The notes beneath the pieces are model-generated. The model was not told where the DNA came from. It did not search any database and saw nothing but the letters and a program-made list of their open reading frames with translations. A program made the position numbers and the translations under genes. From Sphingomonas sp. SORGH_AS_0879 (GTDB lineage: Bacteria; Pseudomonadota; Alphaproteobacteria; Sphingomonadales; Sphingomonadaceae): a stretch of 64,000 nt of DNA. Location: positions 3,905,001 through 3,969,000 of the forward strand of contig NZ_JAUTBJ010000002.1 of assembly GCF_030819175.1 (NCBI RefSeq), in the 5' to 3' direction. Of this stretch, positions 10,005 to 38,992 are shown piece by piece (position 1 is the first letter of the stretch; the number at the start of each line of letters is the position of its first letter).

Positions 10005-10086
10005 TCCTTATGGAACCGACCAAAGTCCCTCCCATGCCAAGGGAAGGTAGATCGTCACCCTTTCGCCATCCAATATTCTTTGGTAA

Positions 10087-10101
10087 TGTTACACTGTAAC
10101 A
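10087..10101. promoter_or_regulatory. Zur-like palindromic operator
   Basis: TGTTACA-C-TGTAACA is a perfect 15-bp palindrome, preceded by GGTAA, 9 bp before the DUF1826 ATG. It resembles zinc-uptake-regulator boxes of proteobacteria (AATGTTATA-type). DUF1826 genes are commonly found in Zur regulons, which supports the reading. Confidence 0.6.
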
Positions 10102-10110
10102 CGAAGAGTG

Positions 10111-20056: not shown

Positions 20057-20254
20057 GTGGCGACAAACGAGGTTCTTGAGGAACAGCTGATGGAGGTAAG
20101 CAGCAGACACGGTGTGCCTGTCCGCGTCCTGCGGCGCCTCCTTGCTTTAGAAGATGATCATCGGAATCTCCACGGTTGGGGCGCTCGTCCGGCTCTGCGG
20201 CGAGACATCGCAGCGGTAATCGAGGAGGAGATGCGGGAAGGTGCCGCGGACTGA
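20057..20254 (+). CDS. Small DNA-modification-system-associated protein
   Basis: A 65-residue basic/acidic helical protein beginning GTG-GCG-ACA. Its helices (VLEEQLMEVSSRHGVPVRVLRRLL and DIAAVIEEEM) look like a small DNA- or protein-binding unit. Short proteins of this kind are found at the head of phosphorothioation-linked operons, and I assign it by that position and general resemblance. Its stop overlaps the ATPase ATG (TGATG), so translation is coupled. No biochemical role is known to me. Confidence 0.6.
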   Translation: MATNEVLEEQLMEVSSRHGVPVRVLRRLLALEDDHRNLHGWGARPALRRDIAAVIEEEMREGAAD

Positions 20255-22296
20255 TGCGTTTCCTCCGGATCGAACTTTCCAACATCTTCGCCTATGATCG
20301 CGCGGTCTCCATCGATCTGTCGGTGACCACGCCAGAGCGGCCGATTGTGCTTGTCTGGGGCAGGAACGGCATGGGTAAGACGAGCTTTCTCAATTCAATG
20401 AAGCTCCTGTTCATCGGCACTGACGACGACCGACTGCGCCACGTCGGCTTCCCGCCACGCAAGCTGCAACCGAAGGCCTACGTGCTCGGCGACGAGGGCG
20501 GCTGGTCAGGCGTCATCAACAGGCGCGCGCGTCATCGTGCGCAGAGCACCGGCGTGCCGGTGACCGCCCACGTTGGGGCCACGTGGGAGATGCCCGACGG
20601 GAGGATCATAACCGCGACGAGAAGTTGGACGTCGAGCGGCGGCGGGTTCCAGGAGGGGCTGGTCGTGACCGACGGTGAGGCTCGGCTGACCGGGCTCGCG
20701 GCGGGTGAGCGGCTCGAGGAGTTCATGCCCCGGGAGTTCGTCGGCTTCTTCTTCTTCGACGGTGAAGACATTAAGAGCCTCGCCGAGGCCGACGGGATCT
20801 ATCAGACCCAGTTTGATCGTCTGCTTCGCATCACCTTCGTGGACAGTCTCGCCGGCGAGGTGCGCAAGCTCGCGGCCGACCGGGGTCGCGGCATGCTAAG
20901 CGACAGTCTGCGGGAACAGATTCAACAGGCCGAAGAGAGTTTGCTGCGGCTGAGGAATGGTCGCGAGATCGCACAGCAGGAGCTCGAGCGGCTGAATGCG
21001 CTTCTGAATGTGGACGAGGCCGATCTGCGGCGTCAGCTGATCAAGCGCGAGAACCTCAGCGGCGGTGCGTCGGAGGCCAAGCGCGAGGCTCTAGAACGGC
21101 GGCAGGGCGATCTGCGCGCCGACCTCGCGCGCGTGGAGAGCGAGATCATCGAGAGGGCGCCGGCCGACGCTCCGATGCTGGCCAACCTCGAGCTTCTGGT
21201 CGCGGCTGAGGAGGCACTCCGTCACCGCCTCAAGTCGCTCGGTGGCAACGCGCACGACGTGTCGGGCCGTATCGTGGGCGCGCTACCGAGGTGGTTGGAC
21301 GAGATCGATCTGCCCGTCGACCTTGATGAGAGACGCAGGGTGGTGGCGTTCCTGTCCGAGCGCATGACAGGGTTAACCGCGGCGCCCAGAACGGGAGGCC
21401 CGTTCGACTCCCTCGACGCTTTGCACGCGCAGCGCATGCTGGACGACGTCATGCGCTGGACGACGGCCGGCCGCGACCTTCGCCGTGGCCAGGTGGCCCT
21501 GCTTGCACAGGTCCGCCGCCTCCGTGGCGATCTGGCCGACCTCGCAGAGGAGATGATGCAGCTGGAGGTCGGCTCGCAGACGACCCTCGAACGGTACAGG
21601 GAGGCCGCGGCGGCCGTCGCCGCGCTCGAGGTCCGCGTGGCCGAATACAACCAAGCGATCGGACGGTACCGCACGCAGCTCGACGAGGCCGATCAGCGAG
21701 AGCGGAACGCGGCCGAGCTCCTGGCGGGTCTGCGCGCCCGGGAGGACGAGGAACTGCGCAACCAGGAGGAGTCGCGCCATATCCTCAAGATCAGCGCGGC
21801 GCTCGTCGACCTGAGGGAGGGGCTGCGCTCCGCGCTCAGAGGACGTCTCGAGGATCGGATCAACGAGCGCTTCCAGTCACTGCTGCACGACAATGAGGTG
21901 GTCGAGAGGGTCGCGATCGATGAGAGCTACACGCTCACGTTTTACGGTCGCCTTGGTGACCGCATCGGTCGATCGAGCCTTTCGAGCGGCCTCAAGCAGC
22001 TTGCCGCGACGGCGCTTCTCTGGGCGCTGAAGGACACGTCGGGGGTGGTGATGCCGGTCGCTGTCGACACTCCGCTCGGGCGCATCGATCGGGCTAACCA
22101 GGGCAGGATGCTCCGTGACTACTATCCCCGCGTCGCGGAGCAGGTGATCGTGCTCCCGACGGACGCTGAGATCGACGCGGAGAAGTATCGCATGCTGCTG
22201 CCGCACGTCGCGACCGAGTACCTGATCGAGAATCCTTTCGGCGACGGGGCCGGAATCTCGCAGGGTAGCCTCATGCCGGAGAGCGTACGTGGTTGA
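20254..22296 (+). CDS. DndD-like SMC/Rad50-type ATPase, second copy
   Basis: A 680-residue ATPase of the Rad50/SMC shape: Walker A GRNGMGKTSFLN near residue 38, a long central coiled coil (about residues 220-560, e.g. LLRLRNGREIAQQELERLNA), a signature-like SSLSSGLKQLAATA, and Walker B/D-loop VAVDTPLGRID. The VDTPLxRxD end is shared with the dndD product encoded at 26276 (VVDTPLSRLD). The length also fits DndD. As a paralogue in the opposite operon, it may recognise or remodel phosphorothioated or unmodified DNA. It overlaps both neighbours. Confidence 0.8.
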   Translation: MRFLRIELSNIFAYDRAVSIDLSVTTPERPIVLVWGRNGMGKTSFLNSMKLLFIGTDDDRLRHVGFPPRKLQPKAYVLGDEGGWSGVINRRARHRAQSTGVPVTAHVGATWEMPDGRIITATRSWTSSGGGFQEGLVVTDGEARLTGLAAGERLEEFMPREFVGFFFFDGEDIKSLAEADGIYQTQFDRLLRITFVDSLAGEVRKLAADRGRGMLSDSLREQIQQAEESLLRLRNGREIAQQELERLNALLNVDEADLRRQLIKRENLSGGASEAKREALERRQGDLRADLARVESEIIERAPADAPMLANLELLVAAEEALRHRLKSLGGNAHDVSGRIVGALPRWLDEIDLPVDLDERRRVVAFLSERMTGLTAAPRTGGPFDSLDALHAQRMLDDVMRWTTAGRDLRRGQVALLAQVRRLRGDLADLAEEMMQLEVGSQTTLERYREAAAAVAALEVRVAEYNQAIGRYRTQLDEADQRERNAAELLAGLRAREDEELRNQEESRHILKISAALVDLREGLRSALRGRLEDRINERFQSLLHDNEVVERVAIDESYTLTFYGRLGDRIGRSSLSSGLKQLAATALLWALKDTSGVVMPVAVDTPLGRIDRANQGRMLRDYYPRVAEQVIVLPTDAEIDAEKYRMLLPHVATEYLIENPFGDGAGISQGSLMPESVRG

Positions 22297-23785
22297 TCGG
22301 ATTCATCTGTCCGGAGAGGATCGCGAGACTCTGCAGTCCGTCCTTCGCAAGGGCCTCGCGCAGAGGACGGAGCAGTGGCTCCCCGCCAGGATCGCGCTTG
22401 CCCAGTCGCTCCGTATACCCGAACCCCCCGACGCCGAGCGCTACAAGGCGCTCTCGTCCCGACCGGGAGGCGTCGAGATGCACGCGCCCCAGCTCATCGG
22501 GGAGGGAAGGGGCCGCGGCGGCGACCTCACCGACGTCATGAGAGCCATGCTCTCCATCTACCACGGCGCGGACGTGGCGGAGGACGACGAGCTGCTGCGG
22601 GATCTGCTGCAGCGGCACGTCAGGCGGGGTCTGGACCACATCCGAGCGAGATGGGACGGCGAACGCGACTTCGTCGACTACATGCTGGACGACCTCTACT
22701 TCGACGAAGGCGCGGTCGACGAGGCGGCGGCCGCTACCGCCGATGGCGAGGAGAGGCTCGCGCGTGTGCTGGGCCAGCTCGGCGTCGGCGCCACCGTCGT
22801 CGAGGTGCGCGACGGACCCAGGCTCACCCGGTTCACCCTCGACCTCCACTCCCTTGAGGATCTTGACCGCCTCCGGCGCAACCTCGCCAAGCTGGCGTTC
22901 GCGCTGGGCTTGGACGACAATGCCATTACCCAGACCCGTGCGCCGGGCGAGCAGCAAGTCCACCTTCTCGTCCCGAGGCCCCCGGCGACGTGGCGCACCG
23001 TCTCCTGGGTGGATCTGCGCGGCGAACTCTCCTCGGCGCAGGCACGCGCCATGCGGCTTCCGCTCTGCCTCGGCACGGATGCGATGGGGACGCCGCTCCT
23101 GCGGGATCTTGCCGACGCGCCGCACCTGCTCGTCGCCGGCACCACCGGCAGCGGGAAGAGCATGACGCTGCACGCGATGCTGCTCTCGCTCATCGAGGCG
23201 CCCGACGCCGCGAGCGAGCTCCTGTTGATAGATCCGAAGGCGGTGGAGTTTTCCGCCTACTCGAAGTTCCCGCGGCTCCGCACCGGCGGCGTCGTCACGA
23301 CGGCTGACGCCGCGCTGGTCGCACTCGAGGATCTCGTCGAGGAGATGGGCGTCCGACAGGAGAGGATGCGCGCCCTCGACGCTCGCGACATCGACGAAGC
23401 AAATGCGCTGGGTGCGCGCATGCACCGCATCGTCGTCGTGGTCGACGAGCTCGCCGACCTCTTCTTCTCCAAGAGCGATGTCGAGACGCCGCTGATCAGG
23501 CTGGCGCAGAAGGCTCGATCTTCCGGCATCCACCTCGTGCTGGCGACGCAGCGTCCTGAAGCGGCGACCTTCTCGGGCTTGCTGCGGTCGAACATCCCGA
23601 GCCGGATCGCTTTGACGGTCCAGAAGGCTGCGGAGTCGCGGATCATCCTGGACGAGGGCGGTGCGGAGGCGCTGCAGAAGCGGGGCGACATGCTTGTGCG
23701 GTTCACCGGCGAGAGCACGGTGCGGGCGCATGGCTGTCGCATACTGCCCGGCGACATCCAGGCCGCCATGGGAGATTTGCGATGA
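22289..23785 (+). CDS. DndE-domain/FtsK-HerA-type translocase fusion
   Basis: A 498-residue protein starting with GTG, overlapping the ATPase gene by 8 bp. Residues 1-120 resemble DndE (IHLSGEDRETLQSVLRKG, LPARIALAQSLRIPEPPD and LLRDLLQRHVRRGLDHI), the nicked-DNA-binding subunit of PT modification. Residues about 200-498 are an FtsK/SpoIIIE-type motor: Walker A AGTTGSGKSMTLH near 284, LLLIDPKAVEF, Walker B IVVVVDELADLFF, and the LVLATQRPEA sensor motif. No membrane or gamma domain is present. The fusion suggests a DNA pump loaded at PT-type sites. Confidence 0.82.
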   Translation: MVDRIHLSGEDRETLQSVLRKGLAQRTEQWLPARIALAQSLRIPEPPDAERYKALSSRPGGVEMHAPQLIGEGRGRGGDLTDVMRAMLSIYHGADVAEDDELLRDLLQRHVRRGLDHIRARWDGERDFVDYMLDDLYFDEGAVDEAAAATADGEERLARVLGQLGVGATVVEVRDGPRLTRFTLDLHSLEDLDRLRRNLAKLAFALGLDDNAITQTRAPGEQQVHLLVPRPPATWRTVSWVDLRGELSSAQARAMRLPLCLGTDAMGTPLLRDLADAPHLLVAGTTGSGKSMTLHAMLLSLIEAPDAASELLLIDPKAVEFSAYSKFPRLRTGGVVTTADAALVALEDLVEEMGVRQERMRALDARDIDEANALGARMHRIVVVVDELADLFFSKSDVETPLIRLAQKARSSGIHLVLATQRPEAATFSGLLRSNIPSRIALTVQKAAESRIILDEGGAEALQKRGDMLVRFTGESTVRAHGCRILPGDIQAAMGDLR

Positions 23786-24924
23786 GCCTCCGGGTGAGCG
23801 ACTGGAAGATGGTCGGACTGACCCTCAGCGAGGTCGGCCCGTTCAGATCCGGCAAGCGCGAGTTCTCGTTCATAGGGGAGACCGCTCCCGCCGACGCGGA
23901 TCCGGGCTCGAGCCCGGGTCCAAGCAACCTCTACATGCTCCTCGCGCCCAACGGCATGGGCAAGACGACCGTCATGGAATCGATCCACGGGCTTTTCGGT
24001 CTCATGGCCGATCCCGTAGCCGGACGCTTCTCGAACCCGCGGCATGGAGGTGCGGCCCAGCTTGACGTCCGGGCGTCCTGGGAGATCGATGGCGCGAGCC
24101 AGACAGTCCTGCTGTCGATATGGACCGGCGCCGACGCGCCGCTGAAGTTCTGGACCGAGGATCAGATAGCGGATCAGGTCCAGGCCGAAGGGTGGGTGCG
24201 GCTCGGACTGACGAGCGGTCTTCAGGGGCCGATCGTACTTCCGGGAACCGACGACCTCGGCCGTAGGCTCTTCACGACCATCCGCGAGGGGCAGAGCGAC
24301 AAGACGCGGTCGCTGACGGATGAACCAAGCCTCCTGCCCACCGTCCTCTACTTTCCTGCTGACCGATCCCTTGTCGCGCCCCAAGGCGAGAGGGTCGTCA
24401 TACCTCCCGAAGACTGGGGCTATTCGCCAGTGTACCGGTTCGGGCACGACGGTCCTGAGTGGCGTACCACCGTGGACAGCCTCTTCGTATGGCTTGAGTG
24501 GCTCGGCGAGGAGAACGTCAAGCCGTTCCTCGACCGCGTGAGCAGGCACGTCTTCGAGGATGAGAGCGGGAAGACGATCCTCAGGCCCGAGCGCGCCGAA
24601 CTTACGACCTACGTCGCGACGAGGGACGGTCCGCATCCGCTCGCCGGTTTGAGCCATGGCGAGCGAGCGCTGCTGCAGATGTTCGGCCGCATCTTCAGCT
24701 ACAGCACGTCCAACACTATCGTGCTCATCGACGAGATAGAGCTTCATCTGCACACGAGATGGGTGAACAGGATGTTCCGTGAGTTGAAGGCGATGCTTGT
24801 GGATAAACCCGGGGTGTCATTGTTCTTCTCGACGCACGACCGCGAGCTGATCAAGACGTTTGACTACGAGAACCCAGAAGTTGGCCTGACGAAGGGCGGC
24901 TTCCTAATCGATGAGATGAATTGA
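23782..24924 (+). CDS. AAA/ABC-type ATPase (OLD-family-like) partner of a TOPRIM-like protein
   Basis: A 380-residue ATPase: Walker A APNGMGKTTVME near residue 55, signature LSHGERALLQMF, Walker B TIVLIDEIELHLH and a switch His in FFSTHDRELI. This layout is that of AAA_15/AAA_21 proteins, which in OLD-type systems drive a TOPRIM nuclease carried on the same or the next polypeptide. ATGA overlap with the FtsK-type gene and a TGATG overlap with the following gene place it firmly in the operon. A restriction role is inferred. Confidence 0.8.
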   Translation: MSLRVSDWKMVGLTLSEVGPFRSGKREFSFIGETAPADADPGSSPGPSNLYMLLAPNGMGKTTVMESIHGLFGLMADPVAGRFSNPRHGGAAQLDVRASWEIDGASQTVLLSIWTGADAPLKFWTEDQIADQVQAEGWVRLGLTSGLQGPIVLPGTDDLGRRLFTTIREGQSDKTRSLTDEPSLLPTVLYFPADRSLVAPQGERVVIPPEDWGYSPVYRFGHDGPEWRTTVDSLFVWLEWLGEENVKPFLDRVSRHVFEDESGKTILRPERAELTTYVATRDGPHPLAGLSHGERALLQMFGRIFSYSTSNTIVLIDEIELHLHTRWVNRMFRELKAMLVDKPGVSLFFSTHDRELIKTFDYENPEVGLTKGGFLIDEMN

Positions 24925-25835
24925 TGCCTCGTCTTTCGGAAATTGGTGACAACGAGGCCATCGACAATCGTTACGCGCGAAAGGTCATCGTCTACGTCGA
25001 GTCGGAAGCCGACGCCACGATCTTCTACGGCCTCACCGAGCCGGGCATCAGGGAGTTCCTGGAGTTCAAACCGCCAACGTCTTTGTCCAGAGGAGCCGAC
25101 GCGGTCATTGAGGAGGTGAGGCTCAGACGTCCGCAGTACCGGCGAACCTTCGGCCTGATCGACGGCGAGGAGGCGGCCGGTTACGGCGCGATCGACGTAT
25201 TGCTCGAATGTCGCACGACGATCTTCAGGCTCCAGGAGGCCGAGGAGGGTCTGATCTTCCTGGGTCAGCACGAGATCGAGAACGTCCTGATCCTGCACGG
25301 CGGTCTGGCGGAGCTCATACGCCGCGACCGCAGCATCCTTTCCTCGGCCGAGCTGTCTGACGGCGAGATCGCGGAGCGGGTGGCGACCGTGGTGCGCCAG
25401 TTCTTCCAGGCGGCTCTGCTGAAGTACGCCTCGATGACGTACAACCACCTGGTCAACAAGGTGACGCCAAAGAGCGGCTGCAAGGTTATCGACAGCGCGC
25501 GGTTCCTGCGATCGGCACCACGGGGCGCGGTACTCGGTGAGATCAAGGCGTCGGTCGAGGCCGAGGGCATCGTCGCCTGGGATGATCTCATGCGGGAGGT
25601 CAAACGGACGTGGCGCCTCGTGCGGCGGGAGTTCATCGACACGCGACCTGATTCCGCGCGGTGCGGCCTCGAGCGCATGCGCCTCACGGATGGGAAGAGC
25701 GTGGTGGCGAGGCTGGCCGCCTTGTCGTCGTCGGACTCGGGCAAGTGGAGCAACCATCTGCTCGAGACCGCGAAGACCAGCGACTACGCTGACCGCTTCA
25801 GGGCGGAGCTTCTCGAGTTCACGGGCGCCGCCTGA
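24924..25835 (+). CDS. TOPRIM/DUF4435-like putative nuclease subunit
   Basis: A 303-residue protein from the ATG at 24924. The N-terminal part reads as a TOPRIM-type fold: strand with acidic residue VIVYVESEADATIFY, then FGLIDGEEAAGYG where the DGE could supply metal-binding acids, and later GQHEIENVLIL. This order (Glu, then Asp-x-Glu, then the HEIEN-type motif) is that of DUF4435 proteins, which pair with AAA ATPases. It would be the cleavage subunit of the ATPase above. The divergent DGE makes activity uncertain. It ends 15 bp from the convergent dndE stop. Confidence 0.65.
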   Translation: MPRLSEIGDNEAIDNRYARKVIVYVESEADATIFYGLTEPGIREFLEFKPPTSLSRGADAVIEEVRLRRPQYRRTFGLIDGEEAAGYGAIDVLLECRTTIFRLQEAEEGLIFLGQHEIENVLILHGGLAELIRRDRSILSSAELSDGEIAERVATVVRQFFQAALLKYASMTYNHLVNKVTPKSGCKVIDSARFLRSAPRGAVLGEIKASVEAEGIVAWDDLMREVKRTWRLVRREFIDTRPDSARCGLERMRLTDGKSVVARLAALSSSDSGKWSNHLLETAKTSDYADRFRAELLEFTGAA

Positions 25836-25850
25836 AGGCCGGGCCGGGCT

Positions 25851-26279
25851 TCACCGCCTCTGAAGAACCTGGCCCGCCGCCTCGAGCAGGGGATCGGCGC
25901 GATTGCGCAGGCCGTCCCAGAGCAGCCCCGCACCGCGGGCCCAATGAGCGGCCACAGCGTCTTGTAGTTCCCGGCGACCCAGCGGGCCCGTGTTCGAGTA
26001 GCCGGTGATCACGCTGATCCAGGAAGCGAGATCCTCCGCCCCGGCCCCGAAGAGGGTCTCACCGCGGATCACCTTGCCGTCAAGGTTGTCGACGGCGGCC
26101 GGAGGGGTCGTGATACTGAGGGACTTGGCGATCGCGAGACGCGCGGGTTGATAGCGGTACTGGAACTCGAGCGCCTTCAGGAGCGAGAGCGTCGCGGTCT
26201 CTCCCGAACGGGAGGTGCGGAAATCGATCCGGCCGATTTCTGAGAGGCTGAGGAGCTTTGGAGCGGGAGGGACGTTCAC
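25851..26279 (-). CDS. dndE: DNA phosphorothioation protein DndE
   Basis: A 142-residue small protein beginning GTG, overlapping the dndD stop (GTGA). The family's helical core is visible: IDFRTSRSGETATLSLLKAL, YQPARLAIAKSLSITTPP, and the C-terminal HWARGAGLLWDGLR. DndE binds nicked DNA and is needed for sulfur insertion with DndC and DndD. It is the last gene of the leftward dndACDE operon. Confidence 0.85.
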   Translation of the reverse strand: MNVPPAPKLLSLSEIGRIDFRTSRSGETATLSLLKALEFQYRYQPARLAIAKSLSITTPPAAVDNLDGKVIRGETLFGAGAEDLASWISVITGYSNTGPLGRRELQDAVAAHWARGAGLLWDGLRNRADPLLEAAGQVLQRR

Positions 26280-28501
26280 GCGGCCACCTCCTCGACGTAT
26301 CCGTCGGCGAAGTCGCTGACGCCGACCCCTGAGCCGAGCTGCAGGCGGTGGGTGATGCGTACGACGCCCGCCGTCGCTGGCGCCAGTGCGGAGAGGTGCC
26401 GATGGCCGATCTCCTCGGGCTGCGTCAGCAGTATGGTCTGACCGCCGCGCTCCATGAGCATCTTCATGACGCCGGCTCGATGCTGGGAGTCGAGCCGGCT
26501 GAGCGGCGTGTCGACCACCAAGGGCAGCTCGCGCTTGGCGACCGCTCCGACCGCGGCGATGAGCGACAGGGCGAACAGCTGGCTCTCTCCGGCCGACAGC
26601 CTGTAGTCGGTAACGTCGTGGCCGTTGGCGTCGAACAGCGCGACGGATCCGTCCCGCTTTATCGATACCCGCGCGATCTGGTCCTTGTGGGACAGTCGCC
26701 TGAAGCACTCGCTCACTGCCTCGGCGAAGCGGTCGTACTTGGACGCCGCCTGGGCGGCGATCCACCGTTCCAGCTCGTCAGCCAGGTGGCGCGCGGCCGA
26801 CGCGCCCTTCGTCTTCGGCGCCAGGGTTGCAAGTCTACCTTCGACTTCGCGCAGTTCACGGAGCTCGGGTTCGAGAGAGGCTTCCAGGAGGGACAGCTCG
26901 CGCTCGATGCCGCGACGCTGCTCCTCTGCCCTTTCCAGCCGTGCGGCAATTTCCACCAGCTCTCGCTGAGCGTCCTCTCGCCCCGCCTGCCGGCGCTGCT
27001 CGTCGAGGCGTGCCATCTCAAGCTTCGTCACCTCGCCGCTGACCTGCTCGAGCTCCGTCCGCAGGGCGCCCACCCGCCCGACCGCGTCGGCTCCCGCGCT
27101 CCGGAGGCGGTTAGCGACCATGCGATGCTCGGTACCGGCGAGATGCACATGCACGGGGGCGCCCGCGGGAGCTGCGCCGTCGCCCGCCCAAGCGCGCTCC
27201 AAGCGCGAGCGCATCGCCTTCGCCACCGACCGATCCAAAGGAGGGTGAAGCGCTGCGAACCTATGCCAGACCTCCTCCAGACCGGCTCGTCCAAGTTCCG
27301 CCGTGGAAGCTATCTGGCCCTCCCGCTCGACCTCGTCGGCAACACGCGACGTGAGTGCCGAACCCATCACGGCGAACGGGCCGAACTCGGCAAGGACGGC
27401 GGCGAGTTCCCGGCGGAGCCGCGCCTTCTCGACCTCGAGCGCGTGGCTGTGCTCAAGCGACGCCTGGAGGTCGGCGTGCGTACCGTTGGCTGTGACGGCC
27501 AGGGCGATCAGAGCGGCTTCGCGCAGACCGCGTTCTCGCTCCACCTCCTCCTTGACGGCCACGAGGCGCTCGTCGGCGCTGGCGATGGTATTCCTCAAGC
27601 GCCCGATGCGATCGTGGAGCTTGACCAGTTCGTCCGGGTCACCAGCGGCCGCGCCGCGTTCGCGATCCTTGGCGTAGGCGCGAAGGTCGTCGGCCAGCGC
27701 CACGACGTCGTCCAAGCCCAGGACCCTCTCGATCGCGGTCCTCACTTGGTCGGACAGCCTGCGGTCCGCCCAACGCTCGATCTGCTCGCCATCGAAGACG
27801 AAGAACGGCGCGAGGCCGGCGGGCATGATCCTGTGCTCGACCTGCTCCTGCAGCCAGCCGAACGGCTCCGCGCCGTCCGGGGCGCGGAGCAGTTCGCGGT
27901 TCCAGCCGACGTGGACGAAGAGCTCCTCGTCGGCTTCGATGAGCGACCCGGACTCGTCGAAGTACCACTTCCTTTCGACTTCGATCGGACCGTCGGCGGT
28001 ATCGAAGTCCAGCCGGACGGCGCAGGCGCCCTCGCGCCTGGAACGTTCCGCTCGGTGCAGGACGCGTTCCATGACCGCGGCGTAAGATCGACGCAAAGAG
28101 TTGCGGCCGGTCGTCACGCCGATGAGCGGTGCGAGGTCGACGAGGGCACGCCGCCCGAACAGCCCGAACGCGAACGCTTCGAGGATCGAGCTTTTGCCGA
28201 AACCGTTCTGGCCACCGACGATGAAGAGGGGACGCGCAGGATCCGCGTCGCCGAGACGGAGCTCGGCGCGTTCGAAGGAGCGCCAGTTCCTGAGCCGGAT
28301 GCGGCTGAGCCGAACTGGGCCTCGATCCGTAATCGAGTCCCCGGCCGCGCGGGGCTCGTCAAGACCTTGGAGCTCGGGGGCGGCCAGCAGCTCGTCGAAC
28401 TTCGCAAACAGCGTGCGGCGGTTGCCGGCTCCCAGGCTCGCGGAGCGGTTGAGCAGCAAACTCGGGACAATTGCTGGAAGGCGGTCGTCCATGAGCGTCA
28501 T
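26276..28501 (-). CDS. dndD: DNA phosphorothioation ATPase DndD
   Basis: A 741-residue SMC/Rad50-like ATPase. An N-terminal extension of about 80 residues precedes VRLSRIRLRNWRSF; Walker A is GGQNGFGKSSILEAF, followed by a FVFDGEQIERWAD motif typical of DndD, a long coiled coil (about residues 250-590), signature LSAGESQLFALSL and Walker B PLVVDTPLSRLD. It powers DNA handling during sulfur incorporation. The ATG at 28501 overlaps the dndC stop. Together with the paralogue at 20254 the element carries two DndD-type ATPases. Confidence 0.9.
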   Translation of the reverse strand: MTLMDDRLPAIVPSLLLNRSASLGAGNRRTLFAKFDELLAAPELQGLDEPRAAGDSITDRGPVRLSRIRLRNWRSFERAELRLGDADPARPLFIVGGQNGFGKSSILEAFAFGLFGRRALVDLAPLIGVTTGRNSLRRSYAAVMERVLHRAERSRREGACAVRLDFDTADGPIEVERKWYFDESGSLIEADEELFVHVGWNRELLRAPDGAEPFGWLQEQVEHRIMPAGLAPFFVFDGEQIERWADRRLSDQVRTAIERVLGLDDVVALADDLRAYAKDRERGAAAGDPDELVKLHDRIGRLRNTIASADERLVAVKEEVERERGLREAALIALAVTANGTHADLQASLEHSHALEVEKARLRRELAAVLAEFGPFAVMGSALTSRVADEVEREGQIASTAELGRAGLEEVWHRFAALHPPLDRSVAKAMRSRLERAWAGDGAAPAGAPVHVHLAGTEHRMVANRLRSAGADAVGRVGALRTELEQVSGEVTKLEMARLDEQRRQAGREDAQRELVEIAARLERAEEQRRGIERELSLLEASLEPELRELREVEGRLATLAPKTKGASAARHLADELERWIAAQAASKYDRFAEAVSECFRRLSHKDQIARVSIKRDGSVALFDANGHDVTDYRLSAGESQLFALSLIAAVGAVAKRELPLVVDTPLSRLDSQHRAGVMKMLMERGGQTILLTQPEEIGHRHLSALAPATAGVVRITHRLQLGSGVGVSDFADGYVEEVAA

Positions 28502-29625
28502 GCCGCATTCCCCACGGCAGGCGCGAGTGCATCCTCCACCCAATGGCGGTGGATGGCGTCGATCTCGTCCTGTCGGATCAATTCGAAACCGACCTCGGCC
28601 TGGGTCGTGAGCAGTCGGTCGAGGATTTCGCGACGCGCCTGCAGCGTGAAGGGGCCGGGGATGAGGCGGCCGCTCCCCACGAAGTTATGGGAGCCGTTGC
28701 GCCGCGTGGGGCTCCGCTTGCTGTTGTCGTCGCGCAGCGCCTTGAGCCAGTCCCGCATCTCGAGCAGTGGCTCCAGGGCCTCGTGACCGGCGTCGACGAA
28801 CGCCTCGGCGCTCTTGTCCTTCTCCACCACCGTGCACGTCCAGCATCCAAATCGCGAGGACTTGGTGCCGCAGGACGGTGCCTCCTCCTTGTCCGTCACG
28901 AGGGGGCATTCGCCGCCGCCGGCGTTCCGGTAGATGGTCACCAAGTCGCGATGGCTCCCTCCCCATGGCGGATCGGACTGCAGCAACACCTGCCAGACCT
29001 CGTCAGTCGACAGGTCGACTATAGGCTTGAAGATGAAGCATTTCTCGAGGCTGTTGTGCGGATTCAACCGCTTACCCCCGTTGCGATAGCGATGCACGCT
29101 GACGGCACGTTGGGGGGACTCCGCCGCCCGAACCCCGAGCAGAAGGACGCTCCTGCCCGCGGACTCGGTCTGCTGCCGTATGTACTTGCTGGTCGGTGCG
29201 ATCTTCATCCTGTCCGTGCACCAGCGGAACATCCGGCTGGGGGAGGGATAGCCGCGACCGATCAAGTTCACCCAGAACGTCTGTTCGACCTCTGGCATTG
29301 TGCGCGCCACGGTGAGCGGCAGGCGGAGCGGCTCGACGCACGCTTCGATCCGGTCGAGGACGGTGTCGAGGTGGCGCGCGATGATGGGTGATTCCACCAG
29401 CGTGTCGTTGGCCACCACGTGGACGTGCCGCTTCCGTGCCCTGGGCGGGAGGTCCATCAGCATCTCGAAGACCAGCTGCGCAAGGAGGGTGCTGTCCTTG
29501 CCTCCGGAGAAGCCTATGATCCAGGGCGCCGCGTCGGGCTGCGTATACTCGTCGCGGAGCTCGTCGATAATCCCCCTGATCTTGACGTCGAGCGTGGGCT
29601 GCTCGTTCTCTCGGGCTGGAGTCAT
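28498..29625 (-). CDS. dndC: DNA phosphorothioation protein DndC (PAPS-reductase/ATP pyrophosphatase family)
   Basis: A 375-residue protein with the PP-loop IIGFSGGKDSTLLAQL near residue 40. Conserved cysteines occur in GGECPLV, APSCGTKSS, FGCWTC (about residues 239-265), matching the 4Fe-4S ligands of DndC. DndC activates the phosphate or sulfur with ATP and takes sulfur from DndA. The FRWCTDRMKIAP motif is also typical of the PAPS-reductase fold. The ATG overlaps the dndA stop and the TGA overlaps the dndD start, so all four dnd genes are coupled. Confidence 0.92.
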   Translation of the reverse strand: MTPARENEQPTLDVKIRGIIDELRDEYTQPDAAPWIIGFSGGKDSTLLAQLVFEMLMDLPPRARKRHVHVVANDTLVESPIIARHLDTVLDRIEACVEPLRLPLTVARTMPEVEQTFWVNLIGRGYPSPSRMFRWCTDRMKIAPTSKYIRQQTESAGRSVLLLGVRAAESPQRAVSVHRYRNGGKRLNPHNSLEKCFIFKPIVDLSTDEVWQVLLQSDPPWGGSHRDLVTIYRNAGGGECPLVTDKEEAPSCGTKSSRFGCWTCTVVEKDKSAEAFVDAGHEALEPLLEMRDWLKALRDDNSKRSPTRRNGSHNFVGSGRLIPGPFTLQARREILDRLLTTQAEVGFELIRQDEIDAIHRHWVEDALAPAVGNAA

Positions 29626-30779
29626 GCTACCTTCCGGTTCATAGATCGCAGTGAGGTGACCGCTTCGGCAAGCGCGTCAATGGCGGTGCTGACTTCGGCA
29701 CGGTTGGTGGAGGGCCCGAGACTGATGCGGACCGCTCCCCTGGCGCGGCGGTCGTCGGCACCGATCGCCTTCAGGACGTGGGAGGGGTCCAGCGACGAGG
29801 ATGTGCAGGCCGAACCAGTGGCGAGCGCTATCCTCTGCCTTACGGCCATTACGAGAGCCTCTCCGTCCACTCCTTGGAAGCTCACGTTTAGGTTTCCGGC
29901 GAGCCGATGCTCGAGGCCGCCGTTGACCGTGAGACCGCCGAGCGCGCGTAATCCGGTCAGAAGCTTGTCGCGGAGTTCGCCGACACGCGCCTCTCGCTCG
30001 ACCATCTCCTTAGCGGCGTGTTGGCAGGCGGTACCGAAGGCAATGCACAGGGGTGCGGGCACGGTGCCGGACCGCAGACCGCCCTCCTGTCCGCCGCCTC
30101 TGAGCAGCGGCGCGAGCCGGCGTCGCAGGCGCCGGCGGCAGTAGAGGGCCCCGATGCCGGAAGGCCCTCCCATCTTGTGTGACGATAGGCTGGCCAAGTC
30201 CATTCTCGCCGCCTGCAACGGGACCTTCGTCAGCGCCTGCGCGACATCAGAATGCAGCAGCGCGCCGGACGCTTCGACGAGGTCGGCGATCTGGTCGATC
30301 GGCTGGACGGTGCCGATCTCGTGGTTCGCCGCCGCGATCGACACGAGGCCGACGTCCGGACCCAGGAGGTCGGCGAGATGGTCTAGGTCGACCCGGCCGT
30401 CGGCGGCGAGGCGAACCTTATCCACCGCGAAGCCCGGCAGGGACTCTGCCGCCGCGAGGACGGAGGGATGTTCGCCGGCTGATACGACGAGGCGGTTGCG
30501 TCCCCCTTCAAGCAGGAACGCGGCGACGCCGCCGAACGCCAGATTGTTGGCCTCGGTTGCGCCAGACAGGAAAACTATCTCTCCCGGCTGCGCCGAGATG
30601 GTCCTGGCCACCTCGGCCCGGGCGACTTCGAGCGCGGCCTTGGTCGCCTCACCGGGGCCGTGGGAGGAGTGCGGATTGAAGTCGTAGCGCCCGTACGCGT
30701 CGTTCAGCGACGAGAGGGCGCGGGGGTCGATCGGGGTGTGCGCCTGATGATCGAGATAGATGACCGTACCAACCGACAA
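29622..30779 (-). CDS. dndA: Cysteine desulfurase DndA (IscS-like)
   Basis: A 385-residue class-V PLP enzyme that mobilises sulfur from cysteine. Visible are IYLDHQAHTPID, the PLP-lysine motif SSHKMGGPSGIGALY, GGGQEGGLRSGT, and the catalytic Cys325 in ALATGSACTSSS. I chose the TTG at 30779: it has GGAG 6 nt upstream and gives the standard N-terminus, while the open frame further upstream is arginine-rich and unrelated. First gene of the dndACDE operon. dndB, the usual modification modulator, is absent. Confidence 0.88.
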   Translation of the reverse strand: MSVGTVIYLDHQAHTPIDPRALSSLNDAYGRYDFNPHSSHGPGEATKAALEVARAEVARTISAQPGEIVFLSGATEANNLAFGGVAAFLLEGGRNRLVVSAGEHPSVLAAAESLPGFAVDKVRLAADGRVDLDHLADLLGPDVGLVSIAAANHEIGTVQPIDQIADLVEASGALLHSDVAQALTKVPLQAARMDLASLSSHKMGGPSGIGALYCRRRLRRRLAPLLRGGGQEGGLRSGTVPAPLCIAFGTACQHAAKEMVEREARVGELRDKLLTGLRALGGLTVNGGLEHRLAGNLNVSFQGVDGEALVMAVRQRIALATGSACTSSSLDPSHVLKAIGADDRRARGAVRISLGPSTNRAEVSTAIDALAEAVTSLRSMNRKVA

Positions 30780-31110: not shown

Positions 31111-31632
31111 GGCATCGTCTCGGCCGGGCTCGACGACACCAGCCCGCTGCTGCCGCGCACCGACGACGTTGATCCTCCAGCCGCCGTCCGGGAGGATCGC
31201 ACGCCCTTCGTCTTCGACGAAGCCCGCGAACGGGTCGCAACGCTGGTCTCGCGCGTGGTCCGGGACCGGGTGTTCCGTCGTATCGTGCTGCGCGCCTATG
31301 ACGAGCGCTGCGCCGTCACCGGGCTAAAGCTGATCAACGGCGGCGGTCGTGCCGAGGTCGAGGCCGCCCATATCCGGCCGGTCGAGGCGAACGGTCCCGA
31401 CATCATAAGCAACGGCATGGCGCTGTCGGGCACGGCGCACTGGATGTTCGACCGGGGCCTGATCGGCTTCGACGATGACATGCGCATCCTGGTGTCGCGC
31501 CAAGTCAACGATCCCGACAGCGTCCGCTTGATCGTGAACCCGTCCGGGCGCGCGATCCTGCCCGCGCATCTGGTGAGCCGACCGCACCCGGACTTCGTGC
31601 GGTGGCACCGCGACCACCGCTTCAAGCAGTAG
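31111..31632 (+). pseudogene. HNH endonuclease, 5'-truncated
   Basis: Downstream of the TAG at 31108 the frame stays open and encodes an HNH domain of the restriction type: VVRDRVFRRIVLRAYDERCA, CAVTGLKLINGGGRAEVEAAH, then IRPVEANGPDIISNGMALS and HWMFDRGLIGF. His/Asn residues of the motif are intact. Full-length relatives have a long N-terminal region that is missing. A GTG at 31255 could start a 125-residue product, so residual activity is possible, but lack of a proper N-terminus makes a decayed gene more likely. Confidence 0.6.
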
Positions 31633-31893: not shown

Positions 31894-34842
31894 ATGTCGA
31901 TCCAGCGTCCCCTCGGTCCCATCGGTCATTGTTCTGCACGGTTGCGACGCCTGCTGGCGATCGAGGAGGAAGAGGCGCTCGGCCGCACGGTACGGGTCCG
32001 GCGGGATGTCCGTGACGCGGTCAGGGACCGGAAGCCGCACGGCAATCGCTGGTCGCGCTCCCCCAATTTCGCGGTGCCGGGTGCCTTCCACCAGCGGTTC
32101 GTCTCGGCAGACGGAAAGGTCACCTTCAACTTCACCTTCGAGCCGGTCAGCAAGACCAGCGATGGCGGCTGCCAGATCAAGACGTCGGAGGGAACCAGGC
32201 GATTGGAGGCCGGGGCGGCGAAGGATCACGACGCCTATATCGACCGTCCCGGGGCGGTGGAGGTCACGATCTCGCCGGACTGGTTCGATCGCTATGCGGT
32301 GCGACCGTCCGCGACAGAGGCAATCGATGGCAAGCGCGCCGTCTTTTCCAACATCTCGCCCGACCCACTGGAACGGCAAGCCTATTGGCAGGCCGTGCAC
32401 GAGTGCGAACGCACGCCCGGCGTGGACCGGCTGACGCTGGTGCCGGAGAATGCGTCGCGCGGCGCCTGGCAGGCGCTGGCGGCCGCGCCCGATGTCCCCG
32501 AGGCGGTGCGCGACATTGCCGCCGTCTTCGCCACCGCCAGGGGCAAGCGCAAAGCCCGCGCCATCCCGCTCGATGATCTGGCAATCGACGGTGCCGCCGC
32601 GCGCGAATTGGCGGAGACGCTCGCCACGATCCTGGGGACCGGCAAGAAGAAGTCGGCTGTCAGGGTCTCGAAGGGACGTGGCGGACGGACGCAATACCGG
32701 TTGACGGCGGAGTTTCCCGATGGGCTCGATGCCGCGGGTCGGCGAGCGGTCACCCAAGCCATCTGCGACCGGCTGGATTCGGCCGGCATCATGTACGTCG
32801 CCGCGATCCATGCGCCCGATCATCACAATGACCACCGCAATCACCACCTGCACCTCGCCTGTCATGACCGACCCGCCAGGAAGATCGGGGACCGTTGGGA
32901 CTTCACGATCGCCGAGAAGGTCGAGGGACAGCATCGCCGGGTCCGCTATCCGTACGCACAGAAGAAGGTGGCCGAATGGTCTCGCGATCCGGACGGCGGT
33001 AACCATCGCTACTATGGCAGCACCTCGGTGGCTGAGATGCGGGCATTCTTCGCCGACCGGTGCAACGAGGAACTCGACCGACTGGGCGCCACCCGCAAGT
33101 TCCATCCAGGCACGCTGCGCTCGCTGGGGTGCGAGCGCGACGGGCAGAAGCCACTCGGCACCCGTGCGGCGCCGCTGGAGGCCGTCGGCGTGCCGACCGC
33201 GACGGGCATCGACAATGCCGAGCTCCTCTGGTCGGCCCTGCTCTGCGAAGCGTGGACCGCGGCTGAGGAGCGCACCAAGGCCCGCACCGCCCTCCGCCGC
33301 CGGCTGGCCGAGGCGGAGCGTCGGTTCACGGAGGGAGCGGGTGTCGATCAGGCCCACGTCGCCGCCATCCGTGATCTCACCGCCCGGCTCGATGTGGCCG
33401 ACGCGGTGCTGCGCCAGCATGATGCCGAATGCGCCGAGTACGACGTCACGCTGGCAATGGCACGCGCCCGGCCGGACAAGACGATCACCGTCTGCCGCCG
33501 CATCCTGAAGGCTATCGGCGAAGGCAAGGCGGACTCGGCCGAGCAGCGGGCGAACGCCGCGATCGCCGCCCGCGCCGACGCAGCCGAGGCGTTCCTCGCC
33601 GGCATCGCTGCCATCGAGCGCGATCATGCCCCGGTGCTGGCCAAGTACCGGACGGCGGTCACAACGGCCCGGGCAGAGGTCGAGGCGATCGCGGATGCTG
33701 CAACGCCGCTGATCGAACGCCCTGCACCGGCTCGCACGCTCGAGCCGGCCCGTCCGGACCCGCGGGCAACGCTTGAGGCGCTGTTCGACCGGATCATGAC
33801 GGACGACATACCGATCCTGCCGCCGGGCGGCACGGTGACCGAATATCGTGTGCCCGGCGTGACGCGCGTCGAGTTCGCCGCTCTGACCACGCCCGCCCTG
33901 GCGGAGATGGCGCAGAAGCGCCTCGCCGTTCTGGCCGACATCCAGGCCAAGCGGATGACCGCTGCCGCAAAGCACCTTGCATCGGTCGGCACGGAGGTCC
34001 TGACGCGTGCCGCCGCCGATGGCGACCCCGGCGCAGCGCGGACACTGAAGCACGTCCGCGCCTATGGCGCCCATCCCGTCTATCTGCGCGCTCTGGCCGA
34101 GGCGCAGAAGACGGAGCCGCCGGTCACTGCGCCCGCCGAGAAGACCGGCCGCACGTGGCGGGATTTCATCGGGGGCCTGCTGGGTCACAATCCGCCGGTC
34201 CAGCCTTCTACTCCCATCGAACCGACGCCACAGCCGCCCGTCCCGGAACCGGTCAGGGATGCGGCACTCTCGTCGCGTGACGAGGCGATCGCGGCCCTAG
34301 CCGCCGCGCTCCTTGTCGACTCCACCCTGCGGGTTGTCGAAGGGAAGCATGGGCTCGTCATCGACACTGCCGACGCTCCCGACTGGCGGGTGTCCGCCGA
34401 CGTCTTTGCCGACGCGCCTGCGGTCCTTGACGCGATGCGTCGACGTCACGCGGCGCCGTGGCTTGACCACAGTGCCATCGAGCGGAACCGCCTGCTGGCC
34501 GACCTCCGCGCCGCGCTGATGAGTGTCACCCGGCCTCCCCTCCGGAAGATCGGGGAACAGTGGAACGTCGATCTCCCCGACAAACGGCTCGCTGCCCTCG
34601 TCACCCGCTGGCGCGGGTACGACAGTCTCGACGCCCTTCTGACTGACGTCGATCGCCAGTGGCGGGGGACCGACGTAGACCGGTACATCGTCGAGGGATC
34701 GACTAGCGTTGGAACCGGCGACGCGACCGTCAGCCACGTCCCGGATCTCGGCACGGACCGTGGTGATGGGCTGCACGACGACCGCGCCTTCGCCCCCATG
34801 GGCTGGGGGGACCGGGGTCGGGGGTGGAGTGGTGAACGCTAG
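31894..34842 (+). CDS. MobA/MobL-family relaxase
   Basis: A 982-residue HUH relaxase. The metal-binding histidine cluster is at about residues 305-322 (IHAPDHHNDHRNHHLHLACH), preceded by strand YVAAIHAP and followed by DRPARKIGDRWDFTIAEKV. The relaxase would nick oriT and pilot the strand during transfer. The middle (about 450-650) is a long helical, Ala/Arg/Glu-rich region, and the C-terminus holds a DUF-type domain ending GWSGER. It lacks a helicase module. The last 546 bp overlap the serine recombinase gene on the other strand. An accessory T4SS from another element would be needed for transfer. Confidence 0.85.
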   Translation: MSIQRPLGPIGHCSARLRRLLAIEEEEALGRTVRVRRDVRDAVRDRKPHGNRWSRSPNFAVPGAFHQRFVSADGKVTFNFTFEPVSKTSDGGCQIKTSEGTRRLEAGAAKDHDAYIDRPGAVEVTISPDWFDRYAVRPSATEAIDGKRAVFSNISPDPLERQAYWQAVHECERTPGVDRLTLVPENASRGAWQALAAAPDVPEAVRDIAAVFATARGKRKARAIPLDDLAIDGAAARELAETLATILGTGKKKSAVRVSKGRGGRTQYRLTAEFPDGLDAAGRRAVTQAICDRLDSAGIMYVAAIHAPDHHNDHRNHHLHLACHDRPARKIGDRWDFTIAEKVEGQHRRVRYPYAQKKVAEWSRDPDGGNHRYYGSTSVAEMRAFFADRCNEELDRLGATRKFHPGTLRSLGCERDGQKPLGTRAAPLEAVGVPTATGIDNAELLWSALLCEAWTAAEERTKARTALRRRLAEAERRFTEGAGVDQAHVAAIRDLTARLDVADAVLRQHDAECAEYDVTLAMARARPDKTITVCRRILKAIGEGKADSAEQRANAAIAARADAAEAFLAGIAAIERDHAPVLAKYRTAVTTARAEVEAIADAATPLIERPAPARTLEPARPDPRATLEALFDRIMTDDIPILPPGGTVTEYRVPGVTRVEFAALTTPALAEMAQKRLAVLADIQAKRMTAAAKHLASVGTEVLTRAAADGDPGAARTLKHVRAYGAHPVYLRALAEAQKTEPPVTAPAEKTGRTWRDFIGGLLGHNPPVQPSTPIEPTPQPPVPEPVRDAALSSRDEAIAALAAALLVDSTLRVVEGKHGLVIDTADAPDWRVSADVFADAPAVLDAMRRRHAAPWLDHSAIERNRLLADLRAALMSVTRPPLRKIGEQWNVDLPDKRLAALVTRWRGYDSLDALLTDVDRQWRGTDVDRYIVEGSTSVGTGDATVSHVPDLGTDRGDGLHDDRAFAPMGWGDRGRGWSGER

Positions 34843-37427: not shown

Positions 37428-37751
37428 ATGCTGCACACACCTGGTGAAATCGCGGCGGATCTCGGCCGGAGGATACAGCATCGTCGCCTGGCGATGAACC
37501 TGACGCAAGTCGACGCGGCGGCCCGCGCCGGCGTCTCCTATCGCACCTGGCGGCGCCTCGAGGCCGAGGGCAAGGCGTCGATCGACGACCTCGTCCGCGC
37601 GGCCGTGGCGCTGCGGTGCGAGCAGGATCTGTTCACCCTCTTCCCGGAGCCGGTGGCCAGTTCGATGGATGCCCTGCTGGAGCAAAAACGGATGACCGAA
37701 CGCACCGCGCCGAAGCGCCGCCGCCGGGCCGCGTCGAGGATTCCATCGTGA
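37428..37751 (+). CDS. hipB: HipB-like Xre-family antitoxin
   Basis: A 107-residue DNA-binding protein. Residues 12-70 are an Xre helix-turn-helix: LGRRIQHRRLAMNLTQVDAA, then RAGVSYRTWRRLEAEGKASI. It would neutralise HipA and repress the operon through the 15-bp inverted repeat abutting its ATG. An in-frame ATG at 37380 lies inside the operator's left arm and is less likely. The C-terminus is Arg-rich (RRRRAAS). GTGA overlap with hipA. Confidence 0.82.
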   Translation: MLHTPGEIAADLGRRIQHRRLAMNLTQVDAAARAGVSYRTWRRLEAEGKASIDDLVRAAVALRCEQDLFTLFPEPVASSMDALLEQKRMTERTAPKRRRRAASRIPS

Positions 37752-38992
37752 AGCTGAGGCCGGGGGCACCGCTGGGGCTCGCACTGGCGTTCGACGATTC
37801 CGCGCCGGCCGCGCAAGCGGGGCGAGTCGTGATGGCCGGTGGCGTCGCCCAGCTCGAATGGTCTCCCGATGTGATCCGCAGCGGCTTGCTCGTTGCCCCG
37901 CTGCTCTATCCTCCCGAGCCGGGCTTGCACGCCGCGCGGAGCCGGTCGTTCGGCGGGCTGCACGGCTTCCTGGCAGACAGCCTGCCCGATGCCTGGGGAC
38001 GGCTGCTGCTGCGGCGTCGCCTCGCCAGGATCGACGTCCAGTTCGACACGCTGAACCCGGTCGATCAACTGGCGATCATCGGCGCCGGTGGCCGTGGCGC
38101 GCTGGTCTATCAGCCAGCCACCACGCCTGACGATGCGATCGGGACGATCGACCTAGATGCCCTGGCCGAGGAATCGCGGTTGCTCCTCGCCGGGGACGAG
38201 GGCGCACTGGTCGACACGCTGGCGGCGCTGGGCGGCGCGTCGGGCGGCGCTCGTCCCAAGGTCCATGTCGGCTTCGCCCCCGACGGCGCGATCAGCGTCG
38301 GCGAGGCCGCGGACGGCCATGACGCCTGGATCGTCAAGTTCCGCGCGACCGGCGACCCGGTCGACATCGGCCCGGTCGAGGAAGCCTATGCCCGCATGGC
38401 CCGCGCCGCCGGTCTGACGATCGCGGAATCCCGCGTCCTGCCCGAGCGCGACGGGCCTGGCTATTTCGCGACGCGCCGCTTCGACCGACCGGCCCCCGGA
38501 CGCCGGCTGCACATGGTATCCCTCGCCGGGGCAGCCGAAGCCCCGTCCGAGATGCCGAGCCTCGACTATGACGGATTCTTGCGTGCGACCATGGCGATCA
38601 CCCGCCATGCCGGCGACGTCGAACAAGCCTTCCGCCGCATGGTCTTCAACGTCCTGGCGCATAATCGCGACGACCATACCCGGCAGCATAGCTATCTGAT
38701 GGGACCGAGCGGTGAGTGGCGCCTCGCCCCGGCCTATGATCTGACCTTCTCGGTCGGCCCGGGCGGCGAACACTATCTCGCGGTCGAAGGCGAAGGCCGC
38801 ACCCCGACCCGCGCCCACGTCCTCGCGCTGGGCCGCCGCCATGGCCTGTCGGATCGCGTCATCGCCCAGATCATCGACCGAACGCGCGGCGCGCTGGCCG
38901 AATGGCCGGTCATCGCCGCCGATGTCGGCGTCACTGTCTCGCGACGCGAGATCGCGGATCGTCTGAAGATCACCGACGACCGCTTCGGGTGA
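37748..38992 (+). CDS. hipA: HipA-family serine/threonine kinase toxin
   Basis: A 414-residue HipA-fold kinase, starting GTG in overlap with hipB. Characteristic elements: N-terminal lobe ending RSFGGLHGFLADSLPDAWG, then GGASGGARPKVHVG (P-loop-like), WIVKFRATGD (ATP lysine), catalytic VLAHNRDDHTRQHS and metal Asp in LAPAYDLTFS. HipA kinases phosphorylate aminoacyl-tRNA synthetases or related targets and cause growth arrest. The pair would stabilise the element by addiction. All key residues appear intact. Confidence 0.9.
   Translation: MKLRPGAPLGLALAFDDSAPAAQAGRVVMAGGVAQLEWSPDVIRSGLLVAPLLYPPEPGLHAARSRSFGGLHGFLADSLPDAWGRLLLRRRLARIDVQFDTLNPVDQLAIIGAGGRGALVYQPATTPDDAIGTIDLDALAEESRLLLAGDEGALVDTLAALGGASGGARPKVHVGFAPDGAISVGEAADGHDAWIVKFRATGDPVDIGPVEEAYARMARAAGLTIAESRVLPERDGPGYFATRRFDRPAPGRRLHMVSLAGAAEAPSEMPSLDYDGFLRATMAITRHAGDVEQAFRRMVFNVLAHNRDDHTRQHSYLMGPSGEWRLAPAYDLTFSVGPGGEHYLAVEGEGRTPTRAHVLALGRRHGLSDRVIAQIIDRTRGALAEWPVIAADVGVTVSRREIADRLKITDDRFG

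What the first reader, a model, noticed from the sequence alone, without database searches (positions are those of the whole stretch)
20057..30779. Two converging, translationally coupled operons form a Dnd phosphorothioation locus with a paralogous partner arm
The leftward operon is dndA-C-D-E with 4-bp overlaps at every junction and no dndB. The rightward operon (small protein, second DndD-like ATPase, DndE-FtsK fusion, AAA ATPase, TOPRIM-like protein) is equally tightly coupled and stops 15 bp away. Both operons carry a DndD-type ATPase and a DndE-type domain, so the partner arm looks like a duplicated modification core converted for another task, probably restriction of unmodified DNA. Known partners of PT modification (DndFGH, SspE, SspFGH, PbeABCD) have different gene content as far as I recall. 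Modification and coupling are seen; the restriction role is inference.
Basis: partly seen in the sequence, partly recalled or inferred. Interest (0 to 1): 0.9.

Follow-up and report, generated by a model that had tools for sequence, protein, structure and literature searches.

The report
Merged two-lineage DNA phosphorothioation locus
Nine tightly packed genes join a full set for marking DNA with sulfur to a second, separately evolved copy of the scanning machinery that lacks its own sulfur-adding enzyme and is followed by two proteins resembling the phage-triggered PARIS system, which suggests, but does not prove, an alarm that tells own from foreign DNA.

The parts
20057..20254 (+). Sp: small protein (65 aa), stand-alone version of the DndC C-terminal tail
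   Evidence: PF20306 29.1 bits, cut-off 27.2; Sp profile of the nine-gene loci against DndC tails prob 96.3, control 0.1
20254..22296 (+). D2: right-arm DndD-clade ABC ATPase (680 aa), no CxC Zn hook
   Evidence: TIGR03185 251.3 bits over cut-off; no CxC; clade with dndC-D2-EF operons 99/99
22289..23785 (+). EF: DndE domain fused to FtsK/HerA translocase (498 aa)
   Evidence: PF08870 30.0 bits at residues 4-121, PF01580 at 250-423; 54% identity to M. amorphae EF
23782..24924 (+). AAA: OLD/PtuA/AriA-type ABC ATPase (380 aa)
24921..25835 (+). TOP: AriB-like TOPRIM protein (304 aa), effector candidate
25851..26279 (-). dndE: stand-alone DndE of the left arm
   Evidence: PF08870 23.5 bits (cut-off 25); 230 bits to a small DndE profile that includes this sequence itself
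26276..28501 (-). dndD: left-arm DndD (741 aa) with an N-terminal extension of about 65 aa, no CxC
   Evidence: TIGR03185 209.4 bits, below cut-off; groups with DndD of dndC-Sp-dndD-EF loci 99/99
28498..29625 (-). dndC: PAPS-reductase-like sulfur transferase (375 aa), lacks the C-terminal tail
   Evidence: TIGR03183 383.3 bits over cut-off, match ends at 364/447 of the profile; only dndC in the genome
29622..30779 (-). dndA: cysteine desulfurase
   Evidence: PADLOC SspA 388 / DndA 373 bits, PF00266 216 bits; TIGR03235 323.6 bits is below its cut-off of 480

Best explanation
The locus is a merger of two separately evolved phosphorothioation (PT) machines. The left arm (DndA-C-D-E) is a complete PT modification set and marks host DNA (family membership shown; activity inferred). 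The right arm is the DNA-scanning core (DndD2 + DndE/FtsK) of a second lineage, which in half of its relatives sits with its own intact DndC. In the window that DndC is gone except for its C-terminal tail, kept as the small protein Sp (shown by profile match, and by two relatives with only the tail). The arm is followed by an OLD/PtuA/AriA-type ATPase and an AriB-like TOPRIM protein, so it most likely no longer modifies but reads: DndE and FtsK load on and move along DNA, D2 tests sites, Sp plugs the place where DndC docks, and a site without PT, or a scanner jammed by a phage product, is signalled to the ATPase, which releases the TOPRIM effector; by analogy with PARIS the effector would cut tRNA and stop the infected cell (all inferred).
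Against: No activity of any part is shown. In three dndC-Sp-dndD-EF loci a detached Sp sits with a tailless DndC and a single DndD, so a detached tail need not mean loss of modification; the right arm could borrow the left DndC. The window TOPRIM protein is below the DUF4435 cut-off (14.6 vs 27), and 1 of 9 family members tested passes it; the R. lemnae member has no PADLOC AriB hit, only a weak JetA one; the model has pLDDT 77.8 and Foldseek TM only 0.34. The ATPase model is nearer PtuA than AriA, and AriA is level with Rad50/SMC heads.
Confidence: 0.5

Rival explanations
1. Both arms modify: the one DndC/DndA pair serves two scanners with different target sites, Sp letting the tailless DndC dock on D2 in trans; the ATPase-TOPRIM pair is a linked back-up effector.
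For: D2-EF is the only DndDE seen next to an intact dndC in five relatives (L063, L064, L067, L068, L071), so it belongs to a modification-type core; in three loci a detached Sp stands with a tailless DndC.
Against: G788 and G881 keep tail-D2-EF-ATPase-TOPRIM with no other DndC match. Sp of the nine-gene loci matches right-lineage DndC tails (96.3) better than it matches Aureimonas-type Sp (53.1; 79.5 the other way round), which in turn matches classical tails (94.7) but not right-lineage tails (15.3), so separate detachments are likely.
Confidence: 0.25
2. Guard model: the right arm does not read PT at all; the PARIS-like pair watches the scanner and fires when a phage anti-restriction product binds or blocks it, as AriA does with Ocr.
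For: AriA-AriB resemblance; PARIS is triggered by an anti-restriction protein (PMC9122126, passages; PMC12707154, passages); PARIS-like pairs are reported next to BREX as a counter to anti-restriction (PMC12839542, passages); a stand-alone ATPase-TOPRIM pair exists in G785 without a dnd match nearby.
Against: In this family the pair is nearly always in the scanner operon (10 of 11 genomes with a strong TOPRIM hit), which favours direct wiring; no trigger is known.
Confidence: 0.2
3. The right arm is the known PbeABCD (CxC ABC ATPase) cassette.
For: PADLOC labels D2 'PbeC' (521 bits); Pbe also has a small protein, a DndD-like ATPase and a DndE cognate (PMC10853773 section 16).
Against: No CxC in D2; no PLD/HKD or helicase domain in the Pfam lists of the five genes. 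The PADLOC label is not diagnostic: the single DndD of the Aureimonas dndC operon, without CxC, scores 1085 bits against a 'PbeC' model.
Confidence: 0.02
4. The TOPRIM protein is a DNA nuclease (OLD-like), so the right arm is a true DNA-cutting restriction arm.
Confidence: 0.15

Closest known systems
DndE-FtsK fusion PT systems (Rakesh, Aravind, Krishnan 2024, PMC10853773; HerA/FtsK 'clade-3')
   Same: DndE fused to a HerA/FtsK domain, next to a DndD-related ABC ATPase, in PT systems
   Different: The sections and passages I read do not mention an ATPase-TOPRIM effector, a DndC-tail origin of the small protein, or a nine-gene merger with a second dndACDE; its supplements were not read
Opposed duplicated DndDE pairs (same paper, section 16: 140 taxa)
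   Same: Two DndDE pairs in opposite orientation
   Different: Here the second pair is of another lineage, has DndE-FtsK and an effector pair, and no dndB was found
PbeABCD / CxC ABC ATPase systems (PMC6459918; reinterpreted in PMC10853773)
   Same: dndCDEA plus a second cassette with a small protein, a DndD-like ATPase and a DndE cognate
   Different: No CxC Zn hook, no HKD-helicase PbeA; FtsK, AriA/PtuA-like ATPase and AriB-like TOPRIM instead
PARIS (AriA-AriB; PMC9122126, PMC12409363)
   Same: OLD-type ABC ATPase followed by a TOPRIM protein whose predicted fold is closest to AriB
   Different: Wired into a PT scanner operon; DUF4435 score of the window protein below the PARIS detection threshold; ATPase model nearer PtuA
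DndFGH/SspFGH
   Same: FtsK domain of EF matches the C-terminus of SspH (PADLOC)
   Different: EF is 498 aa with DndE at its N-terminus; no listed PADLOC hit of the five proteins is DndF or DndG (lists capped at 25 for D2 and the ATPase)

Membership tests
PT modification system (DndA-C-D-E) | DndC sulfur transferase, DndD ABC ATPase, DndE, sulfur source | tested here: met
   DndC over its NCBIfam cut-off; left D, E and A below their curated NCBIfam/Pfam cut-offs but full-length and grouped with relatives
PT modification system (DndA-C-D-E) | Phosphorothioate in host DNA | not testable with these tools
   needs mass spectrometry or iodine cleavage
DndE-FtsK PT systems (PMC10853773 clade-3) | DndE fused to HerA/FtsK beside a DndD-related ATPase | tested here: met
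   placement in their HerA/FtsK tree not tested
PbeABCD | CxC Zn hook in the ABC ATPase | tested here: not met
   absent from both window DndDs; present in the L061 (second), L070 and L073 ATPases
PbeABCD | PbeA: HKD nuclease fused to SF2 helicase | tested here: not met
   no such Pfam domain in any of the five right-arm proteins; the rest of the genome was not searched for it
PARIS | AAA_15 (>=32) or AAA_21 (>=27) ATPase, detection rule of PMC9122126 | tested here: met
   AAA_21 54.3 bits
PARIS | DUF4435 >= 27 bits in the partner, same rule | tested here: not met
   window 14.6; of 9 family members tested 1 passes, L064 with 27.2
PARIS | AriB fold of the TOPRIM partner | tested here: met
PARIS | Trigger-dependent release and tRNA cleavage | not testable with these tools
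   bench assay needed
DndFGH/SspFGH | DndH/SspH of 1,500-1,800 aa with nuclease domains | tested here: not met
   EF is 498 aa; only its FtsK part matches SspH

The most novel reading that the evidence does not exclude
A DNA-modification machine was turned into a dedicated modification sensor: a DndD-DndE/FtsK scanner that lost its sulfur-adding DndC domain but kept the DndC docking tail as a separate plug, and that reports unmarked DNA to a PARIS-type ATPase-TOPRIM suicide effector, while a second Dnd set of another lineage does the marking. It would be a PT system that kills the infected cell, probably through tRNA, instead of cutting the invader.
Probability: 0.33. Interest if true: 0.82.

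Novelty: new variant of a known kind. Interest (0 to 1): 0.62.

Why it matters
How a Dnd locus tells marked from unmarked DNA and what it does next is unsettled; the 2024 reappraisal (PMC10853773) argues that DndFGH and Pbe are not simple restriction partners. Here nature has done the separation: one arm with the sulfur enzyme, one arm with only its docking tail plus an effector. That allows a direct genetic test of whether a DndDE scanner can read PT without writing it. It also suggests an origin for the 'DNA modification system-associated small protein' (a detached DndC tail) and ties PT systems to PARIS-type abortive effectors. For annotation it matters that PADLOC's best model for both window DndDs is labelled 'PbeC'.

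Tried and rejected
Local duplication of the modification core: rejected by the AU test and by the trees. Pbe membership: rejected (CxC, PbeA domains). N-terminal extension of the left DndD as a fused Sp: no match (prob 0.1-0.7). HNH gene next to dndA as a relative of the HNH gene beside R. phaseoli dndC: no useful match. Viral contigs with the EF N-terminal alignment: 68 pattern stretches, none a relative. TOPRIM profile against solved-structure sequences: 5 irrelevant hits, so the AriB link rests on PADLOC/DUF4435 profiles and the predicted fold. Window TOPRIM in plasmids: 2 records, both nine-gene loci; L064 TOPRIM in plasmids: none. Phage records with D2: 4 partial hits. OLD, retron and other folds at lower Z are not excluded. 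Rows dropped before counting: L074 (G048), an EF-like FtsK frame at a contig end without a DndE profile match; L075 (G435), an Sp hit with pieces of a broken DndD; both are outside the 15 loci. Prevalence is not estimated: the genome-contig scans used peptide patterns (none; 175 stretches, 4 relatives); the window's order gave 1 of 346 for the EF N-terminus (itself), its class 1 of 385 for TOPRIM (itself) and 2 of 385 for PF20306 over cut-off (itself and G435).

Not in print, as far as searched: (open-licence PMC only). Of the papers listed I opened PMC10853773, PMC12839542, PMC8649781 and PMC12707154 (passages); the others were judged by listing. Supplements and Krishnan et al. 2020 (recalled; not held) were not read. 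PMC8569181 was seen as an abstract only.

Full report
What is there. Nine open genes fill 20057-30779. Leftward: dndA (29622-30779), dndC (28498-29625), dndD (26276-28501), dndE (25851-26279), each overlapping the next by 4 bp. Rightward: Sp (20057-20254), D2 (20254-22296), EF (22289-23785), ATPase (23782-24924), TOPRIM (24921-25835), overlaps 1, 8, 4 and 4 bp. The convergent stops are 15 bp apart. Family searches give DndC over its cut-off, D2 over the DndD cut-off, left DndD below it, DndE at the N-terminus of EF, FtsK in its C-terminal half, PF20306 (Sp-DndD) for the small protein, AAA_21 for the ATPase, and weak AriB/DUF4435 matches for the TOPRIM protein. The genome holds one dndC, and a dndB query found nothing.

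The same nine genes elsewhere. Plasmid tblastn with EF found two homologues over at least 80% of its length, and a genome scan added two: Mesorhizobium amorphae pM0123d (L013), Rhizobium sp. RCAM05350 plasmid (L012, frame-broken), R. rhizogenes (L016) and R. lemnae (L017). All four carry A-C-D-E-Sp-D2-EF-ATPase-TOPRIM in one direction, followed by a DndB (DGQHR) gene on the other strand in L013 or by a PT-associated methyltransferase gene in L012, L016 and L017. The window is the only one of the five with converging arms.

The right arm has its own history. A DndD search in 398 genomes of the window's phylum gave 15 genomes over the cut-off: by neighbourhood and tree 8 carry D2-type DndD (the window included) and 7 classical DndD. 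With two hits below the cut-off (G777, G828) and G881 there are 10 loci in which D2-EF stand without a second DndDE: nine continue with ATPase-TOPRIM, and L063 has TusA instead before its contig ends. With the five nine-gene loci, ATPase-TOPRIM follow EF in 14 of 15, and a second dndD-dndE is present in 5 of 15. Several of the ten lie on short contigs; in the whole-genome search no second DndD match of comparable strength was listed for them, but only two candidates per genome were scored. Of the 10, dndC is intact in 5 (L063, L064, L067, L068, L071), split in 1 (L069), internally deleted in 1 (L066), reduced to its tail in 2 (L065 = G788; L086 = G881, whose genes lie on two contigs) and cut off by the contig end in 1 (L072). 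A dndC search in those ten genomes agrees: 9 of 10 match, G788 only at residues 373-433, G881 only at 359-435, G828 not at all.

The left arm belongs to another lineage. Plasmids of Aureimonas, Burkholderia glumae and R. phaseoli carry dndC-Sp-dndD-DndE/FtsK, two of three with TusA and none with the ATPase-TOPRIM pair. The DndD tree (29 rows) joins left DndD with these three (99/99) and D2 with eight rows of the ten-locus group (99/99), apart from classical DndD. DndC (18 rows) joins the nine-gene DndCs with the same three (99/97). The DndE tree (20 rows) has one main split, 100/100, with left DndE and the three on one side and right EF with the ten-locus group on the other; it is short, holds no classical DndE and carries a long-branch warning. 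Holding left DndD and D2 of four nine-gene loci together costs 124.8 log units, p-AU 1.7e-35 (26 rows, the three long CxC rows left out). So this is a merger of two lineages, not a copy made on the spot.

The small protein is a DndC tail. Window DndC is 375 aa; tailed DndCs are 436-523 aa. PF20306 matches those tails near the C-terminus in 3 of 7 tailed DndCs (E 0.0022, 0.016, 0.054, all below the cut-off) and in 0 of 2 tailless ones. Profile comparison is clearer: nine-gene Sp against right-lineage DndC tails prob 96.3, E 2e-9; against classical tails 93.9; against the left DndD N-terminus, as a control, 0.1. Sp of the Aureimonas type matches classical tails (94.7) but not right-lineage tails (15.3), and the two Sp sets match each other at 53-80, which points to two separate detachments.

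How it may work. Shown by sequence: a full writer set, a second scanner without the writer's catalytic domain, and an effector-like pair in its operon. Inferred: division of labour between writer and reader, Sp as a plug at the DndC docking place, signalling from the scanner to the ATPase, and tRNA cutting by the TOPRIM protein. The main rivals are that Sp lets the left DndC serve both scanners, and that the pair guards against phage anti-restriction proteins; the data do not separate these.

Relation to what is known. Rakesh et al. 2024 (PMC10853773; I read the abstract, sections 14, 16, 17, 24 and passages) already report DndE fused to HerA/FtsK beside a DndD-related ATPase, opposed DndDE pairs in 140 taxa, and that Pbe is the CxC ATPase system with a small protein and a DndE cognate. 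Their section on associated nucleases lists HKD, HNH, REase, NERD, URI, HEPN and PIN; in the main text TOPRIM appears only in other contexts and PARIS not at all. Xiong 2019 (PMC6459918; abstract, first of seven parts of the text, passages) defines Pbe. PMC12839542 (passages) reports PARIS-like pairs next to BREX, so recruitment of such pairs by modification-based systems is a known theme. PMC9122126 (passages) gives the PARIS detection rule, which the window pair meets for the ATPase and misses for DUF4435. Searches showed no paper that joins PT systems with a TOPRIM/AriB effector or names Sp-DndD; most listed papers were judged by title and abstract start, two more were opened for passages (PMC8649781, PMC12707154), and supplements were not read.

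Verdict. I call it a new variant of a known kind.

Noticed in passing
L022 12026-12262, L024 12062-12265, L063 5324-5566, L068 12847-13131: A TusA-family sulfur carrier gene ends several dndC-dndD-DndE/FtsK operons in which no dndA was seen, as if TusA supplied the sulfur. Three papers hold both DndC and TusA (listing only).
   Followed up: partly
L065 (G788) 9574-10515 and L086 (G881) 1484-1780: D2 operons whose DndC is reduced to its C-terminal tail; no other DndC match in those draft genomes.
   Followed up: yes
L106 8579-11265 (G785): Stand-alone ATPase-TOPRIM pair of the same family, preceded by a small protein that looks like an FHA domain (recalled motif, not searched).
   Followed up: partly
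PADLOC PbeC models PDLC02733, PDLC02721, PDLC02736: These models score DndD-clade proteins without CxC (1085 bits for the Aureimonas DndD), so the 'PbeC' label is not diagnostic of Pbe.
   Followed up: yes
window 31255-31632: HNH_2 endonuclease ORF (125 aa) divergent from dndA; may be a short or truncated nuclease gene.
   Followed up: partly
window 31894-34842, 37616-38992, 40795-40869: MobA/MobL relaxase gene, HipA-like gene and a tRNA-Val beside the locus, suggesting a mobile region.
   Followed up: no
window 26276-28501, first 65 codons; L013, L016, L017 left dndD: Left-type DndD has an N-terminal extension of about 60 residues that matches neither Sp nor DndC tails.
   Followed up: partly
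L016 13649-15553, L017 13651-15555, L012 18717-20499: A PT-associated putative methyltransferase gene (634 aa in L016 and L017) follows the nine genes in three of five loci, frame-broken in L012.
   Followed up: no
G029:C21, G004:C15, G047:C14, G009:C28: Frames of about 1,800 aa with an EF-like FtsK domain in relatives of the host, perhaps DndH/SspH-type proteins.
   Followed up: no
L075 (G435) 7820-9632: An Sp-DndD hit over cut-off next to pieces of a broken DndD.
   Followed up: no
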